NCBI GenBank assembly: GCA_903877165.1
Contig: CAIRCU010000009.1
Span: forward strand, 57,708 to 121,707
DNA: 64,000 bases
Origin: Methanobacteriota archaeon
Lineage (GTDB): Archaea; Thermoplasmatota; E2; DHVEG-1
Reading direction: 5' to 3'
Shown here: positions 21,237-64,000 of the stretch, in pieces
Layout: every line of letters starts with the position of its first letter
How positions within the stretch are numbered: the stretch's first letter is position 1
Made by a program: the position numbers and the translations under genes
The notes under the pieces: model-generated
What the model saw: only the letters and a program-made list of their open reading frames with translations
The model's database searches: none
Told to the model about the DNA's origin: nothing

Positions 21237-22244
21237 ATGATTCGCGAATACCTCAAACTAGCCCGGTCATTCAACATCGTGTTCACCGGCGTCGCCCCAA
21301 TCATGGGTGCGATTGCCATGGGCGAGTTCAACGTCGGCATGCTGTTCCTGCTCTTCATCGTTGGCTTCTGGGGGCATACGTTTGGGTTCGTGTACAACGA
21401 CATCCGTGACTTCACCATCGACAAGTCCTCCAAGGAGATCGGCGACCGGCCGCTCGTCAGCGGCACAATCAGCATCGGGCAGGCGTGGGTGTTCGCCGTG
21501 CTCGCCGTCATCTCCGCTTTTATCGTCTCGCTCATCATCGGCGTCCTCACCCACCAGTTCTACCCCATTATCATCCTTGCCATCGCCGCCGGGTTCATCG
21601 TCCTGTACGACCTAATCGGCAAGAAATACCCGTACATGGATGTGCTCGTGTCACTGGGCGTCTTCTTTCTCATCCTGTACGGGGCAAGCACGACCGTATC
21701 GAGTCTTACGCTCATCACGCCGCTGGCGTGGATCGTCTGCGCCTTGGGCGGAATCCAGGTGTTCTTCATGCAGATTGCCGGTGGCATCAAAGATATTGAG
21801 AACGATACGCTTCGCGGGGTCCGGACCATGGCGGTGCGCCTAGGCGTGCGCGTCACGGACGGCCGCCTGCACGTGCCTTCATCCTTTCAGGTGATTGCGT
21901 ACGGCATCCAAGTCCTCGATATCCTCGTCGTGTTCCTGCCGTTTTTCCTCGTCTGGAATACCAGGGGCCTGACGCCGTGGGAGATTGGGCAGTGGATCGT
22001 GCTGTTCTGTCTCGGCGTCGTGATGCTGCTGCTGTCGCATCGGCTGCTGTCCATGCCTATGTTTAATCGTGGGCAGGCGCGGATGCTCATCGGCAGTTAC
22101 TACATGGTGAACTTCGCGATGGTGCCGATCATGCTGATGAGCCTGAACCTCGCCATATGGGTGTTGGTGTTTATCCCCGGGATTGGGTTCCTGTTGTCGA
22201 ACCTCATGCTGCATGGGACGCTGATGCAGCCGAAGACCATGTAG
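21237..22244 (+). CDS. UbiA-family prenyltransferase
   Basis: NDIRDFTIDKSSKEIGDRPLVSGTIS (first Asp motif), GGIKDIENDTLRGVRTMAVRLG (second Asp motif); ORF start at 21141 likely overextended. Confidence 0.9.
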   Translation: MIREYLKLARSFNIVFTGVAPIMGAIAMGEFNVGMLFLLFIVGFWGHTFGFVYNDIRDFTIDKSSKEIGDRPLVSGTISIGQAWVFAVLAVISAFIVSLIIGVLTHQFYPIIILAIAAGFIVLYDLIGKKYPYMDVLVSLGVFFLILYGASTTVSSLTLITPLAWIVCALGGIQVFFMQIAGGIKDIENDTLRGVRTMAVRLGVRVTDGRLHVPSSFQVIAYGIQVLDILVVFLPFFLVWNTRGLTPWEIGQWIVLFCLGVVMLLLSHRLLSMPMFNRGQARMLIGSYYMVNFAMVPIMLMSLNLAIWVLVFIPGIGFLLSNLMLHGTLMQPKTM

Positions 22245-22410
22245 AAACACTTCCAAGAACGCAATATATCTGCATTTTTTCGCCGCTCTCTGTGCTGTCG
22301 ATATCCTCCCTGACAGGATAACAAACTATTTTTATCATTGGGGATAAAAGATATAAGAATAATTTTGGTACATCTTTACCAATAAATCAGGAGGGAATTC
22401 ATTCTAATAA

Positions 22411-56672: not shown

Positions 56673-57452
56673 ATGAGCGAGGGAAAAGCGGAGAAAAAGG
56701 AGCAGGATGCGTTCCTGCGGACCCGCATTCCAGGGTTTGATGAGTTGTTCGCAGACGGCGGGATCCCTCGCCATAACGCGGTGCTCGTGGCTGGGGGGAC
56801 CGGGACTGGGAAGAGCACGTTTTGTCGGCAGGTCTGCTACAGTCTTGTGAGCGCCGGTAAGCACTGCATGTACGTCAGTTTCGAGGAGAGCATCGAGAAG
56901 GTCGTTCGGAGCATGAAGGCGTTCGGCTGGGACGCAAAGAAGTATGTGGATGACGGGTCGCTGCTGATTCAGAAAATCAATCCGCTGGATATCCTGCGGA
57001 TGAAGTTCGGTTCGGTGAGCGGCTCGGGGTCGGCGACCGAGCTGTCGTACAAGATCAAGCCGTTGATTATCCCGAAGGATTTCAACCCGGAGGTGATCGT
57101 GGTGGATTCCTTGACCGCGATTATCTCGGCGTCGATTAGTAAGGAGAAGAACTATCGGGTGTATCTGCAGCAGCTGTTCAATTTCTTCGAGGAGACTGGG
57201 GCGACGTCGTTTCTGATTACAGAGACGGAGCCGGTGCCGACGCGGTTCAGCGACACCGGGATCGAGGAGTTCCTGGCGGACGGGATCCTGGTGATGTACA
57301 ATATCCAGCGTGGGGATCGTCGGGAGAACGCGGTGGAGGTGCTGAAGATGCGGTATTCGCAGCATCAAAAGAAGGTGTTTTCGATGGAGATAGGGTCTGG
57401 CGGTATTCGGGTGTTCCCGGATCGCCAGGTAATCCTGCCGGTTTATAAGTAG
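56673..57452 (+). CDS. KaiC-like RecA-superfamily ATPase (single domain)
   Basis: RIPGFDELFADGGIPRHNAVLVAGGTGTGKSTFCRQ Walker A; VIVVDSLTAI Walker B. Confidence 0.92.
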   Translation: MSEGKAEKKEQDAFLRTRIPGFDELFADGGIPRHNAVLVAGGTGTGKSTFCRQVCYSLVSAGKHCMYVSFEESIEKVVRSMKAFGWDAKKYVDDGSLLIQKINPLDILRMKFGSVSGSGSATELSYKIKPLIIPKDFNPEVIVVDSLTAIISASISKEKNYRVYLQQLFNFFEETGATSFLITETEPVPTRFSDTGIEEFLADGILVMYNIQRGDRRENAVEVLKMRYSQHQKKVFSMEIGSGGIRVFPDRQVILPVYK

Positions 57453-57670
57453 GTATAGGGTTCTTTATGGTCGTCGAGGCGTTTGACGTTGAAGGTGGTG
57501 AGGAGGGCCTCGAGGGTTTTGACTTGTTGTTTGGAGAGTCCGATTCTGCGGATGAGGATGTTGTCGTATTCGTCGTAGATGGTGAGGGTGCCTGCCTCTT
57601 GGTTTGAGATGGCTTTGAGGATTCGGTAGTTCTGCACCCAGATCCAGATTTTGATGCCATTTTGTGCCAT
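57443..57670 (-). CDS. small WxWxQ-family protein
   Basis: MAQNGIKIWIWVQNYRILKAISNQEAGTLTIYDEYDNILIRRIGLSKQQVKTLEALLTTFNVKRLDDHKEPYTYL; convergent overlap with KaiC gene. Confidence 0.65.
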   Translation of the reverse strand: MAQNGIKIWIWVQNYRILKAISNQEAGTLTIYDEYDNILIRRIGLSKQQVKTLEALLTTFNVKRLDDHKEPYTYL

Positions 57671-57832
57671 GGGTATCCGTCTCACTCTTTAATATATACT
57701 TTGCTTTATAAATATATAAATATTTTCATATAAATTAATATAGGGTCCCCAGGCATGCCACACTATAGCACGACTACTGGATGGGCTTCAGGATAAAATA
57801 ATTATACAAGCACCCCCATACCACACCCGAGG

Positions 57833-58600
57833 ATGGACGCGATGACACTCGTACAATTAGACAAAAAAACCCAAGGTACAACAATCCAACGCCTCAAAAC
57901 CGGCGTCCCGGGAGTCGACAACCTCCTGTCCGGCGGCCTCCCCAAACACACCATCACTCTTGTATCCGGCCCCCCAGGGAGCGGCAAATCTATCTTCTGT
58001 TACCAATTCACCTACCAAGGCATCGCCGACGGCCAGAAATGTCTCTACATGACGCTAGATAAGAAAATCGAAGGCCTCCTTTCGCAGGCGAGCGAACTCG
58101 GCCTCAACTTCCAGCCCGCGATTGACGCAGGCCAAGCCAAGTTCCTCTTCCTCAACATCAACAAGAAACTCATCTACGAAACCATGGTCAACGAGATCCT
58201 CTCCGGCAACTACGACCGCATCGTCCTCGACTCCATCACCCCCCTCTCAGAGATGCCCATCTACCTCAACAACCCAGAGTTCTCCAACGACCTCTCCAAC
58301 GTCGACCCTGAGGAGCTCGTCAGCGGCAACTTCCCGGTCCGCCGCCTCCACCTCCACTACATCGTCAACGCCCTGGAGACCTCCGGGACCACCGCCGTCG
58401 TCACCTCGGAACTCCCTGCAGGATCCAACCACATGTCACGCGACGGGATCTCCGAATTCCTCGCGGACGGCGTCATCGTCCTTTCCCTCGACCCCACCAT
58501 GGACCGCCGCAAACTCGCAATCCTGAAGATGCGCAGCACCAAGCACACCCTCAAACCCCAGGACATGCAGATCGACAAAGGCGGCATCCGCCTCGTCTAA
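57833..58600 (+). CDS. KaiC-like RecA-superfamily ATPase (single domain)
   Basis: KTGVPGVDNLLSGGLPKHTITLVSGPPGSGKSIFCYQF; RIVLDSITPL. Confidence 0.92.
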   Translation: MDAMTLVQLDKKTQGTTIQRLKTGVPGVDNLLSGGLPKHTITLVSGPPGSGKSIFCYQFTYQGIADGQKCLYMTLDKKIEGLLSQASELGLNFQPAIDAGQAKFLFLNINKKLIYETMVNEILSGNYDRIVLDSITPLSEMPIYLNNPEFSNDLSNVDPEELVSGNFPVRRLHLHYIVNALETSGTTAVVTSELPAGSNHMSRDGISEFLADGVIVLSLDPTMDRRKLAILKMRSTKHTLKPQDMQIDKGGIRLV

Positions 58601-60450: not shown

Positions 60451-61422
60451 TCAGACTTCTGGAAGGAAACGGAGCTTATGCACCTCCCCGACGATGAAGT
60501 AATCGTATTTTCGCACCGCCTGGGGAAACCTCTCTTTGATATCCTTCATGACCCGATGGATGTCATCAGAGTCCGCAAAATCAAACTCCAACTCGAGATC
60601 TGAGACGCCGGCGGACGTCCCGATGAACACCAGATGCGGATGATGCTTGATGTACTCAATAATCTCCTTGCGCTGCGTATGCTCCTGCAGCTGCACATCG
60701 ACCTTAAACGGCTTCAGCCCAAGCTTGGCCAAATCATACCCAACGCGGAAGCTCTGAATCACGTTCTGCTGCCGCAATCGTTTGAGCCGACTCGTGACCA
60801 TCTGGGTAGAACACCCTAATTCCTTCGCCATCGCGACCAGAGACATCCGTGCATCCAGAGCCACAAGGTTCAGGAGCCGCAAATCATACTCATCGACCTT
60901 CACCTCAGAACCACCACCGGTAATCTCCCCCTTCTCCCGGTCCTTCTCCACAAACTCCTCTCCCAGTAAGTAACTGCAGGGATATGAGAGGCCCTGGACG
61001 TAAATCGAAAAGATCTTCTCCGCGAAATAGTCCCCGAACCGGTCCAGGAGCCGTTCCCAGAACTGATAAAAATCCCGGATGTTCCTCACCCACAGGAAGA
61101 CGCCGAGGTCGTACTTCCCGATAATGGACTCCACCACCCAGGTCCGCTTATCCTTCACGAGAAAGGCGATGAGGTCGCTTTCAATCTCCGGGGTCATGTA
61201 CTGGTATACTAGGTAGAACCGGAAGACGATGTATCCCAGCTTGTACGAGTCGATCTGCGTCCAGAACTCGGTGATGATGCCATCCTCTTGCATCCGCTTG
61301 ATCCGGTAGGAGACGACGTGCTTCTTCAGCCGCACTTTCTTGCCGATCTGCGTCAGCGACTGCCGCGAGTTCAGATCCAGCTGGTACAGGATGCGACGAT
61401 CGGCGATATCCAAGCGGTCCAT
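60451..61422 (-). CDS. two-HTH Lrp/AsnC-family transcriptional regulator (fused)
   Basis: AsnC HTH LDIADRRILYQLDLNSRQSLTQIGKKVRLKKHVVSYRIKRMQEDGII and second HTH VDEYDLRLLNLVALDARMSLVAMAKELGCSTQMVTSRLKRLRQQNVI. Confidence 0.9.
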   Translation of the reverse strand: MDRLDIADRRILYQLDLNSRQSLTQIGKKVRLKKHVVSYRIKRMQEDGIITEFWTQIDSYKLGYIVFRFYLVYQYMTPEIESDLIAFLVKDKRTWVVESIIGKYDLGVFLWVRNIRDFYQFWERLLDRFGDYFAEKIFSIYVQGLSYPCSYLLGEEFVEKDREKGEITGGGSEVKVDEYDLRLLNLVALDARMSLVAMAKELGCSTQMVTSRLKRLRQQNVIQSFRVGYDLAKLGLKPFKVDVQLQEHTQRKEIIEYIKHHPHLVFIGTSAGVSDLELEFDFADSDDIHRVMKDIKERFPQAVRKYDYFIVGEVHKLRFLPEV

Positions 61423-61551
61423 AATTCTAACAAACCGTTATTTCCAATCGACTATTTCATTGTTTTGCAAGAAAAACGCACGCTGTACGCTTAAATGTTT
61501 TCGAAGAATCCGTCATACAGAACGTGGGGGAAGTGTGAGTGAGACCATTAA

Positions 61552-62799
61552 CAACGCTATTTACTCTATCGGGGGGAGACGGCCATTTTTGAAATTCTGA
61601 ACTGGTACGGCATACTCACCCTTACCCATCTGTTCGCTCAAGTCAGCTTCGGCCACCGCGATTACCTCGACTCGATCAAAAAAGAAGACTGCGAAGAATC
61701 CACCGCGGTCCGTAACCAACGCGCAGCGCCGTACTTCACCCAAAGCGTCGCCATCGTCATCCCCACCTACAACGAGGGACCACAGGAACTCGAGGACTGC
61801 GTCCGCTCCGCACTGCGCCAGGACTACCGCCATAACTTCTACGTCATCGTCATCGACGACGGCAGCAAAGACAAGCGAGGCATCAACCACGTCCGGCGTT
61901 GTTTCGAGGGTACCCCGAACCTCTTCATCCATGAGTATCCCGTCAACAAAGGGAAGCGACATGCGCAGAAATACGGGTTCGACTTCTTCGGCGACAGCGT
62001 CGACATCATGGTGACGATCGACAGCGACACGATTCTCGAGCCGGATGCCGTCACCTATCTCGTCGCGCGTCTCGCGGACCCCAAGGTCGGTGCGGTCACC
62101 GGTGACGTCAGAGCCATCCGGCAGAACTTCTTGACCACCCTCATCGACGCCCGATACTGGACCGCGTTCAACCAAGAACGAGCAGCACAAAGCCTCTTCG
62201 GCACGGTCCTCTGCTGCTCCGGGCCGCTCGCCGCGTACCGCAACACCCTCGTCCAGCGCGTCAAAGAGGAGTACATCACCGAGAAGTTCCTGGGTGACTA
62301 CTGTACCTACGGCGACGACCGGCACCTCACGAACCTCGTCCTGGAGCAAGGCTACACCGTCCACTACGAACGCAAAGCAAAAGCCCGGACCTACGTCCCC
62401 CAGCACCTCAAACCCTGGCTGAAACAGCAGTCCCGCTGGAACCGAAGCTTCTACCGAGAATTCCTCTGGACCATCCGAAGAGTCATCATCCCGGGCAAAT
62501 GCCAGAACGTCTACATGATCTACGACCTGCTCATGCAATGCATCCTGCCCTTCCTCCTCATCGGATCCCTGACCTTCGTCTTCCTGAGGTCCACCACCGA
62601 CAGCTGGATTTACCTCATCGGCTACCTTGCGATCGTCGTCGCGATCTCGCTGCTGCGCGGCATCTACGCATACCTGCGGACACGGGAGAAGATGTTCTTC
62701 GTCTTCCCCTTGTACGCCTTCTGCCACATCTTCCTGTTACTCCCAGTACGGGTGTATGCACTATGTACACTAAAAACCACAAAATGGGGCACACGCTAG
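61552..62799 (+). CDS. processive family-2 glycosyltransferase (hyaluronan synthase-like), 5' end apparently frame-broken
   Basis: In-frame translation upstream of the listed ATG (62008) gives WYGILTLTHLFAQ..VAIVIPTYNEGPQELEDCVRSALRQDY..VIVIDDGSKDKRG; then TIDSDT, GDDRHLTN, QQSRWNRS. No ATG/GTG/TTG in frame between the stop at 61549 and 62008. Confidence 0.88.
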   Translation, partial: QRYLLYRGETAIFEILNWYGILTLTHLFAQVSFGHRDYLDSIKKEDCEESTAVRNQRAAPYFTQSVAIVIPTYNEGPQELEDCVRSALRQDYRHNFYVIVIDDGSKDKRGINHVRRCFEGTPNLFIHEYPVNKGKRHAQKYGFDFFGDSVDIMVTIDSDTILEPDAVTYLVARLADPKVGAVTGDVRAIRQNFLTTLIDARYWTAFNQERAAQSLFGTVLCCSGPLAAYRNTLVQRVKEEYITEKFLGDYCTYGDDRHLTNLVLEQGYTVHYERKAKARTYVPQHLKPWLKQQSRWNRSFYREFLWTIRRVIIPGKCQNVYMIYDLLMQCILPFLLIGSLTFVFLRSTTDSWIYLIGYLAIVVAISLLRGIYAYLRTREKMFFVFPLYAFCHIFLLLPVRVYALCTLKTTKWGTR

Positions 62800-63296
62800 A
62801 CATTGGCATTCGGGCAGGACTCATCCTCGCCTGCATCGCCTACCTGATCCTCGGCTATCCAGCCTACCAGCCGCTGCCGCAAGTCACAGCACAAGCGGAT
62901 GCCTGGCTGCTCAACGCGGTCGGTATCCACGCGGTCAGCTACGGGCGGTTCCTCGTCGCCTCGTTCCCCGCAGCGGACTGCATCTACGAGCTGTCGTACG
63001 AATGCTGCGGACTCATCCTGTTCTCCATCTACTTCATCGTCGTCTTCCTCGTCCCCAACTTCTCGTACAAGCACCGTTTCATCGCCGTCCTCTTCCTCCC
63101 TCTCATCTTCCTCGGCAATATCGTCAGGATTGGCCTAGGTGTCATGGTCGGCTATCATATCTCCATCGACGCGTCCATATTTTTCCACGACACCTTTGGC
63201 CAAATCCTGATCTTCATCTGGATTATCGTCTGTTTCCTTGCCTGGTTGAAGATCACCAAGAATTTCCCATCGGAAAAAAAGGAGGTCATGAAATAA
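62763..63296 (+). CDS. exosortase/archaeosortase-family transpeptidase-like membrane protein
   Basis: 177 aa; polytopic; Cys in YELSYECCGLILFSIYFIV, Arg in LGNIVRIGLGV, His in IFFHDTFGQ: the Cys/Arg/His layout of the exo/archaeosortase family. Correct start in-frame ATG 62763. Confidence 0.85.
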   Translation: MYTKNHKMGHTLDIGIRAGLILACIAYLILGYPAYQPLPQVTAQADAWLLNAVGIHAVSYGRFLVASFPAADCIYELSYECCGLILFSIYFIVVFLVPNFSYKHRFIAVLFLPLIFLGNIVRIGLGVMVGYHISIDASIFFHDTFGQILIFIWIIVCFLAWLKITKNFPSEKKEVMK

Positions 63297-63784
63297 TGAA
63301 AAGAAGAGCAATCATCGGAGCAAGCATTCTGCTGCTGATCGCCACCCCGCTCATCACCGGGGCTGTCGCGGCCACATCTGATACCCAAACAAGCCTGTTC
63401 ATCAGCCTAGACACCTACTGGGAACACAAAAACAACGGCGATGCATTCGTGGTACGAGCCGACGTCAAGAACATCGGAGACTATGCCGCAATCGACACCG
63501 TCATCAACCTGAAAAACGTCCCCAGCGACTGGAACACCACACCCTGGCACATGAACATCCCCATCCTCGCACCCGGCCAGACCAAGACATGCTACTTCAT
63601 CATCGAACGAGGTCCCACCAACTCGACCATCTATGCGACCGCCGAAGCACTCAACGCACCCCTCGTCCAGTCGAACCGCATCGCCATCCCCATCAGCCTG
63701 TACGTCATCGCTGGGTTCGCCGTAGTCTGCAGCGTCCTCATCATCCAAGTACACAGGCAGAGGAAGAAAAACAACACCAAGTAG
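63296..63784 (+). CDS. exported protein with C-terminal TM and basic tail; candidate archaeosortase substrate/partner
   Basis: MKRRAIIGASILLLIATPLITGAVAATSDTQ signal; C-terminus RIAIPISLYVIAGFAVVCSVLIIQVHRQRKKNNTK; start overlaps archaeosortase stop (TAATG). Confidence 0.7.
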   Translation: MKRRAIIGASILLLIATPLITGAVAATSDTQTSLFISLDTYWEHKNNGDAFVVRADVKNIGDYAAIDTVINLKNVPSDWNTTPWHMNIPILAPGQTKTCYFIIERGPTNSTIYATAEALNAPLVQSNRIAIPISLYVIAGFAVVCSVLIIQVHRQRKKNNTK

Positions 63785-63830
63785 TACACAAGGATACAAG
63801 AGGCTCCGAAAAAAAGAGAGCGGACCTGTC

Positions 63831-63848
63831 GGGACTTATTGAAGTCCC
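63831..63848. repeat. inverted repeat GGGACTT-ATTG-AAGTCCC downstream of the archaeosortase cassette
   Basis: 7-bp perfect arms, 4-nt loop; T-rich tract further downstream at about 63913. Confidence 0.6.
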
Positions 63849-64000
63849 TTCAGGAAAATTGCTCGACATCTGCCAGTTTCATCATCTGTTGTGCAAAACG
63901 GATAACAGACATCTCTTTCTTTTTTTCTTTTTTTGTTATTGCGACCCCCCTAAATGAAGTTACAAAAAAAGTTACAATAATTTTGAAACCTTTAGTAGCC

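What the first reader, a model, noticed from the sequence alone, without database searches (positions are those of the whole stretch)
61535..63784. Cassette: HAS-like processive glycosyltransferase, archaeosortase and dedicated exported partner
Seen: a GT2 with VIPTYNEG, DDGS, DSD, GDDRH and QxxRW motifs is followed by an overlapping 177-aa polytopic protein with Cys (YECCG), Arg (NIVRIG) and His (FFHD) at exo/archaeosortase active-site positions. That is followed by a TAATG-coupled exported protein ending in a TM helix and basic RQRKKNNTK tail. Established: exosortase/archaeosortase systems process substrates with a C-terminal motif, TM helix and basic tail, and often co-occur with polysaccharide biosynthesis genes. 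Inference: this is a compact one-substrate system in which a synthesised glycan and a sorted anchor protein are made together. The downstream protein's C-terminus (IAIPISLYVIAG...) is not an obvious PGF-, PEF- or PIP-CTERM, so it may carry an undescribed sorting motif or be an accessory factor rather than a substrate.
Basis: partly seen in the sequence, partly recalled or inferred. Interest (0 to 1): 0.85.

Follow-up and report, generated by a model that had tools for sequence, protein, structure and literature searches.

The report
Glycan synthase, archaeosortase, surface-protein cassette
In a small set of uncultured Thermoplasmatota archaea, an enzyme that probably builds and exports a sugar polymer, a protein-anchoring enzyme and one small surface protein always occur together as a three-gene unit, which is an archaeal version of an arrangement known in some bacteria and a testable case of how cells couple protein anchoring to sugar coats.

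Summary
The cassette is real. A hyaluronan-synthase/NodC-like GT2 (61585-62799), a 177-aa exo/archaeosortase (62763-63296) and a 162-aa exported protein (63296-63784) overlap one another. The sortase passes the general exo/archaeosortase cut-offs of NCBIfam and Pfam but none of the named subfamilies; Cys81, Arg122 and His142 are invariant in relatives. The trio is all-or-none: 8 of 46 genomes of the archaeal family (392 sampled in the phylum) carry the sortase, exactly the same 8 carry the GT, and all 8 the partner (one cut by a contig end). Seven of the 8 also encode a larger archaeosortase, ArtA-like in the window's genome. The partner is a beta-sandwich followed by a conserved S-x-x-I-x-I-P-(I/V), one TM helix and a basic tail; nothing else in the genome shares this end. 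A one-substrate system is the best reading, but cleavage is unproven and an accessory role fits too. The arrangement has precedent: Firmicute XrtG systems (Firmicu-CTERM, XrtG, glycosyltransferases) are built alike, and two actinobacterial MAGs show an exported protein, an exosortase and a HAS-like GT. Verdict: a new variant of a known kind, of moderate interest.

The parts
61585..62799 (+). HAS/NodC-like processive GT2, 404 aa, likely ATT start
   Evidence: TIGR04242 296 bits, full length, below its cut-off of 550; hyaluronan synthase structures E 4e-54; conserved in 8 genomes
61575..61578 (+). GGAG, candidate ribosome-binding site of the GT, 6 nt before ATT
   Evidence: read from sequence; inference
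62763..63296 (+). Exo/archaeosortase family protein, 177 aa
   Evidence: TIGR04178 38.7 bits > 23; PF09721 36.2 > 25.7; all named subfamily models below cut-off
62763..62799 (+). 37-nt overlap of GT 3' end (KTTKWGTR) and sortase 5' end (KNHKMGHT)
   Evidence: overlap also present in the relatives
63003..63005 (+). Cys81 of the sortase, predicted nucleophile
   Evidence: invariant in the alignment
63126..63128 (+). Arg122 of the sortase
   Evidence: invariant
63186..63188 (+). His142 of the sortase
   Evidence: invariant
63296..63784 (+). Exported partner, 162 aa: signal peptide, beta-sandwich, TM helix, basic tail
   Evidence: found in all 8 genomes with the sortase; model pLDDT 82.8
63671..63694 (+). 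Conserved S-x-x-I-x-I-P-(I/V) of the partner (residues 126-133), candidate recognition/cleavage region
   Evidence: S, I, I, P invariant in 7 sequences; role inferred
63701..63781 (+). Partner TM helix (from residue 136) and RQRKKNNTK tail
   Evidence: DSSP of model; RK invariant
60451..61422 (-). Divergent Lrp/AsnC-type regulator upstream; possible, not exclusive, part
   Evidence: next to the cassette also in L016 and L021 but a large paralogous family in general; HTH domains

Best explanation
The three genes form one envelope module. The GT polymerises a beta-linked glycan from UDP-sugars and extrudes it through its own membrane channel, as hyaluronan synthases do. The partner is exported by its signal peptide and held by its C-terminal TM helix. 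The archaeosortase cuts the partner on the outer face at or near the conserved I-x-I-P-(I/V) motif and transfers the new C-terminus to a membrane-lipid or glycan acceptor, so that the partner is displayed together with the glycan, probably as its anchor or organiser. Shown: gene identity, overlap, all-or-none co-occurrence, invariant catalytic residues, conserved tripartite C-terminus. Inferred: polymer type, cleavage, acceptor, and role of the partner.
For: Overlapping genes in all loci. Sortase in 8/46 family genomes, the GT in exactly the same 8, the partner in 7 plus one truncated by a contig end. Sortase above general cut-offs with invariant C81, N119, R122, H142. GT end-to-end NodC/HAS-like. 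Partner with signal peptide, conserved SxxIxIP(I/V), TM helix and RK tail in 7 sequences. No other protein of the genome shares this end, which suits a one-substrate system. A similar arrangement exists in the Firmicute XrtG system (PMC12854382) and apparently in two actinobacterial MAGs. For ArtA, cleavage of tripartite C-termini and lipid attachment are shown by experiment (PMC7157517).
Against: No cleavage data. The beta-sandwich ends at residue 131 and the TM helix begins at 136, so there is almost no linker of the kind usual in PGF-CTERM proteins (the comparison is from general knowledge). No NCBIfam sorting-signal model matches the partner's end at E <= 1, although HMMER's filters can miss such short models. 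The sortase model is of moderate confidence (70.5) and has no fold match in the PDB. In L021 (SG8-52-3) the GT lacks the DSD segment and the partner lacks a clear signal peptide, which is either assembly error or decay.
Confidence: 0.58

Rival explanations
1. The partner is a permanent single-pass accessory protein (chaperone, scaffold or glycan-binding subunit of the synthase). The sortase then acts on other proteins or on the synthase complex.
For: Domain abuts the TM helix. The best fold matches are TRAP-complex chains from Sec61-TRAP structures, which have a similar lumenal beta-sandwich and TM layout. CARDB/NEW3-like weak Pfam hits.
Against: The motif next to the membrane and the RK tail are conserved while the TM sequence is not. 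The sortase would then lack any recognisable substrate, since no other protein shares a tail family with it.
Confidence: 0.27
2. The sortase processes proteins with a signal different from the partner's, or shares PGF-CTERM substrates with the ArtA-like enzyme; the operon is only co-regulation.
For: The genome also has an ArtA-like gene and a PGF-CTERM protein.
Against: The ArtA-like enzyme already covers PGF-CTERM and is present in most family genomes, while the small sortase follows the GT and the partner exactly.
Confidence: 0.1
3. Chance operon: three unrelated envelope genes that happen to be adjacent.
For: Synteny can persist in close relatives.
Against: The overlaps persist at 40-60% protein identity across four genera, the distribution is all-or-none, and the flanking genes differ.
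Confidence: 0.03

Closest known systems
XrtG system of Firmicutes (TIGR03110 exosortase, TIGR03111 GT, Firmicu-CTERM protein)
   Same: One exosortase, adjacent GT2 genes and one CTERM protein as a compact unit (PMC12854382)
   Different: Sortase 22.3 bits against a cut-off of 102.75 and GT 56 against 364, so not members; the GT here is HAS/NodC-like with a WGTR end; archaeal host; no Firmicu-CTERM match
ArtA / PGF-CTERM with PssA and PssD
   Same: Exo/archaeosortase fold family; substrates with motif, TM helix and basic tail
   Different: About 177 aa instead of about 310 aa; linked to a glycan synthase instead of lipid synthesis genes; partner end has no PGF; the genome has its own ArtA-like gene as well
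XrtH and ArtE exo/archaeosortase subfamilies
   Same: Among the best-scoring named subfamilies for this protein and its relatives; similar short length
   Different: 27-36 bits against 86 (XrtH) and 19-37 against 95 (ArtE)
Class I hyaluronan synthase / NodC
   Same: Catalytic motifs, TM layout and WGTR end
   Different: Below the NodC cut-off; no nucleotide-sugar dehydrogenase gene beside it; paired with a sortase
Actinobacterial exosortase + HAS-like GT pair (L025, L027)
   Same: Exosortase gene ends at the GT start; an exported small protein lies upstream, with a TM-plus-basic C-terminal sequence readable in another frame
   Different: Gene order reversed, long XrtV/XrtA-like exosortase, and the small protein's frame is broken in both MAGs

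Membership tests
Exosortase/archaeosortase superfamily (TIGR04178, PF09721) | Model score above curated cut-off | tested here: met
   38.7 > 23 and 36.2 > 25.7; the cassette sortases of all 8 genomes over the cut-off
Exosortase/archaeosortase superfamily (TIGR04178, PF09721) | Conserved Cys, Arg and His | tested here: met
   C81, R122, H142 invariant
Exosortase/archaeosortase superfamily (TIGR04178, PF09721) | Cys/Arg/His close together in space on the outer face | tested here: inconclusive
   Model pLDDT 70.5; order of helices is compatible, distances could not be measured
Exosortase/archaeosortase superfamily (TIGR04178, PF09721) | Cognate substrate with motif, TM helix and basic tail that is cleaved | tested here: inconclusive
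   The tripartite end is present and conserved; cleavage not testable by sequence
ArtA / PGF-CTERM | PGF motif in the partner and an ArtA-type enzyme | tested here: not met
   No PGF in the partner; ArtA model not among the hits; a separate ArtA-like gene exists on C6
XrtG system | TIGR03110 and TIGR03111 above cut-off | tested here: not met
   22.3 against 102.75 and 56 against 363.95
XrtG system | GT + exosortase + one CTERM protein in one unit | tested here: met
   organisation only; analogy, not membership
ArtE / ArtF / XrtH / XrtX | Subfamily cut-off | tested here: not met
   all below cut-off in four homologues
HAS / NodC-type processive GT2 | DDGS, DSD, GDD, QxxRW, C-terminal WGTR, end-to-end similarity | tested here: met
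NodC equivalog | TIGR04242 above cut-off | tested here: not met
   296 against 550 bits
HAS / NodC-type processive GT2 | Sugar specificity and polymer synthesis | not testable with these tools
   needs enzyme assay

The most novel reading that the evidence does not exclude
The archaeosortase joins the partner's new C-terminus directly to the polysaccharide made by the adjacent synthase, giving a protein-glycan conjugate at the archaeal surface through a sorting motif (S-x-x-I-x-I-P-I/V) not described before. HAS-like or other GT2 plus exosortase plus one tailed protein would then be a general device found in archaea, Firmicutes and Actinobacteria.
Probability: 0.15. Interest if true: 0.8.

Novelty: new variant of a known kind. 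Interest (0 to 1): 0.47.

Why it matters
What exosortase-type enzymes transfer their substrates to, and why they sit beside glycan genes, is unresolved outside ArtA (general knowledge). A minimal three-gene unit with one candidate substrate and one glycan synthase makes that question testable in a heterologous host. It also suggests that glycan-coupled sortase modules were put together more than once.

Tried and rejected
Single-sequence search for the sortase in genome contigs: nothing. Sequence search for solved relatives of sortase and partner: none meaningful. Fold search with the sortase model: no hit at E <= 0.001. Regulator as an exclusive part: rejected, it is a large paralogous family often beside a radical-SAM-like gene. 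Apparent second copy of the partner's end on contig C33: it is the same gene, overlapping contig ends with one mismatch. C37 C-terminus hit: an ABC phosphate-type permease, chance. Other HAS-like GTs in the phylum (G087, G095, G101, G121, G385): no sortase recognised beside them. The genome has two UDP-glucose dehydrogenase family proteins, so UDP-GlcA supply is possible but the polymer stays open.

Full report
Observation. The window lies at the end of contig C9 of a 1.98-Mb, 57-contig genome. Relatives that carry the cassette are named Thermoplasmata, Thermoplasmatales or Euryarchaeota MAGs. The GT, sortase and partner are present as described. GT and sortase overlap by 37 nt, sortase and partner by one.

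The synthase. The GT matches NodC end to end (296 bits) and solved hyaluronan synthases. It keeps DDGS, DSD, GDDRH, QxxRW and the WGTR end. Relatives in Lactococcus, Pilibacter, Streptococcus hillyeri, Bacillus, Alicyclobacillus and a nanoarchaeon sit beside a nucleotide-sugar (UDP-glucose type) dehydrogenase gene (read from the sequence), which points to UDP-GlcA polymers there. The window genome has two UDP-glucose dehydrogenase family proteins elsewhere. Whether the polymer is hyaluronan-like or GlcNAc-only cannot be told.

The sortase. It passes the general models but no named subfamily. Cys81, Asn119, Arg122 and His142 are invariant. The model (pLDDT 70.5) has helices at 11-35, 37-52, 83-96, 102-132 (with a break) and 135-166, and a short beta region at 57-76. 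Basic residues at both ends suggest that both termini are cytoplasmic, which would place the three residues towards the outer face; this is inference. The conserved sortase N-terminus (MYxKNxKMGH) is DNA shared with the conserved GT end (LKTTKWGTR), so its conservation may reflect the GT.

Distribution. Among 46 genomes of the taxonomic family, 8 in four genera have the sortase. The GT occurs in exactly these 8. The partner is found in 7 of them, and in the eighth (G014, L008/L020) the contig ends inside a gene that begins with a signal peptide at the same place. In 392 genomes of the phylum there is no other sortase of this type. HAS-like GTs in other families of the phylum have no sortase nearby. 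Seven of the 8 genomes have a second, larger archaeosortase; G065 (82% complete) shows only the cassette sortase. In the window's own genome the larger one lies beside PssA- and PssD-like genes, as reported for Methanosarcina artA, and a PGF-CTERM protein passes its cut-off. Within genus g12, the G065 cassette is closer to the window's (GT 73%, sortase 73%) than to those of its congeners (GT 68-69%, sortase 56-58%), and it shares the upstream regulator, which hints at horizontal movement.

The partner. It has a signal peptide, a beta-sandwich (pLDDT above 90 in most strands) and a TM helix at about 136-161. Seven homologues share S-x-x-I-x-I-P-(I/V) at the membrane edge and an R-K tail; the TM sequence itself is not conserved. 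It evolves faster than GT and sortase (43-49% identity, against 62-73% and 53-73%, window to relatives) but under purifying selection. No other protein in the genome shares the C-terminus (the one weak hit is a permease). Foldseek ranks TRAP-complex chains first (TM-score about 0.49); beta-sandwich folds are common, so this says only that such domains can serve as uncleaved accessory parts.

Mechanism. The best reading is a one-substrate sortase coupled to a glycan synthase: glycan extrusion, export of the partner, cleavage at the I-x-I-P segment, and transfer to a lipid or glycan. Everything from cleavage onward is inference. The main rival, the partner as a permanent accessory protein, keeps about a quarter of the probability, because the folded domain leaves little linker for cleavage.

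Known relatives. XrtG systems of Firmicutes combine one Firmicu-CTERM protein, XrtG and two GTs (PMC12854382). Two actinobacterial MAGs have an exosortase directly before a HAS-like GT, preceded by an exported small protein. In L027 a VPEAPLA-TM-RRR end is readable in another frame, and in L025 a TM-plus-RRRR end; in each MAG that gene shows one break, at different places. The present cassette fails XrtG-specific membership but is organised alike. No paper in the held library holds both 'archaeosortase' and 'hyaluronan synthase'; the Haft 2012 paper that described these families was not available to check, so a published mention of this subfamily cannot be ruled out.

Downstream. Contig C33 begins with 209 bp of the window's 3' end (99.5% identical) and continues into a tRNA-Arg(CCG) gene and housekeeping genes. 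So the operon ends with the partner in that version. In the window the sequence departs from C33 about 15 bases into the tRNA.

Noticed in passing
window 63820-64000 and L092 1-280: The window's 3' end matches the start of contig C33 for 209 bp, then departs about 15 bases into a tRNA-Arg(CCG) gene that C33 continues. This could be an element integrated in the tRNA or strain variation in the MAG.
   Followed up: partly
window 61585: The GT appears to start with ATT, a rare start codon, behind a good GGAG site; relatives have ATG, GTG or TTG there.
   Followed up: partly
L021 4995-6999 (SG8-52-3; same locus as L006): GT has an in-frame deletion of about 32 residues that includes the catalytic DSD, and the partner has no clear start or signal peptide; assembly error or decay.
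   Followed up: partly
L025 2822-6167 and L027 2675-6161: Actinobacterial MAGs with an exported small protein, a long exosortase and a HAS-like GT in a row; the small protein's frame is broken once in each.
   Followed up: partly
L004 / G000:C6 around 21998-22270: ArtA-like archaeosortase beside PssA- and PssD-like genes, with a PGF-CTERM protein elsewhere on the same contig.
   Followed up: partly
window 60451-61422 (-): Double-HTH Lrp/AsnC-like regulator, one of a large family in these archaea (up to 21 matches in one genome), often beside a radical-SAM-like gene.
   Followed up: partly
window 56673-58600: Two neighbouring KaiC/RadA-like ATPase ORFs (259 and 255 aa) seen while reading the flank.
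   Followed up: no
L017, L018, L019 downstream of the partner: In one genus the cassette is followed by a secreted papain-like (C1A) peptidase, and preceded by a small protein resembling chagasin-type peptidase inhibitors; assigned by reading the sequence only.
   Followed up: no
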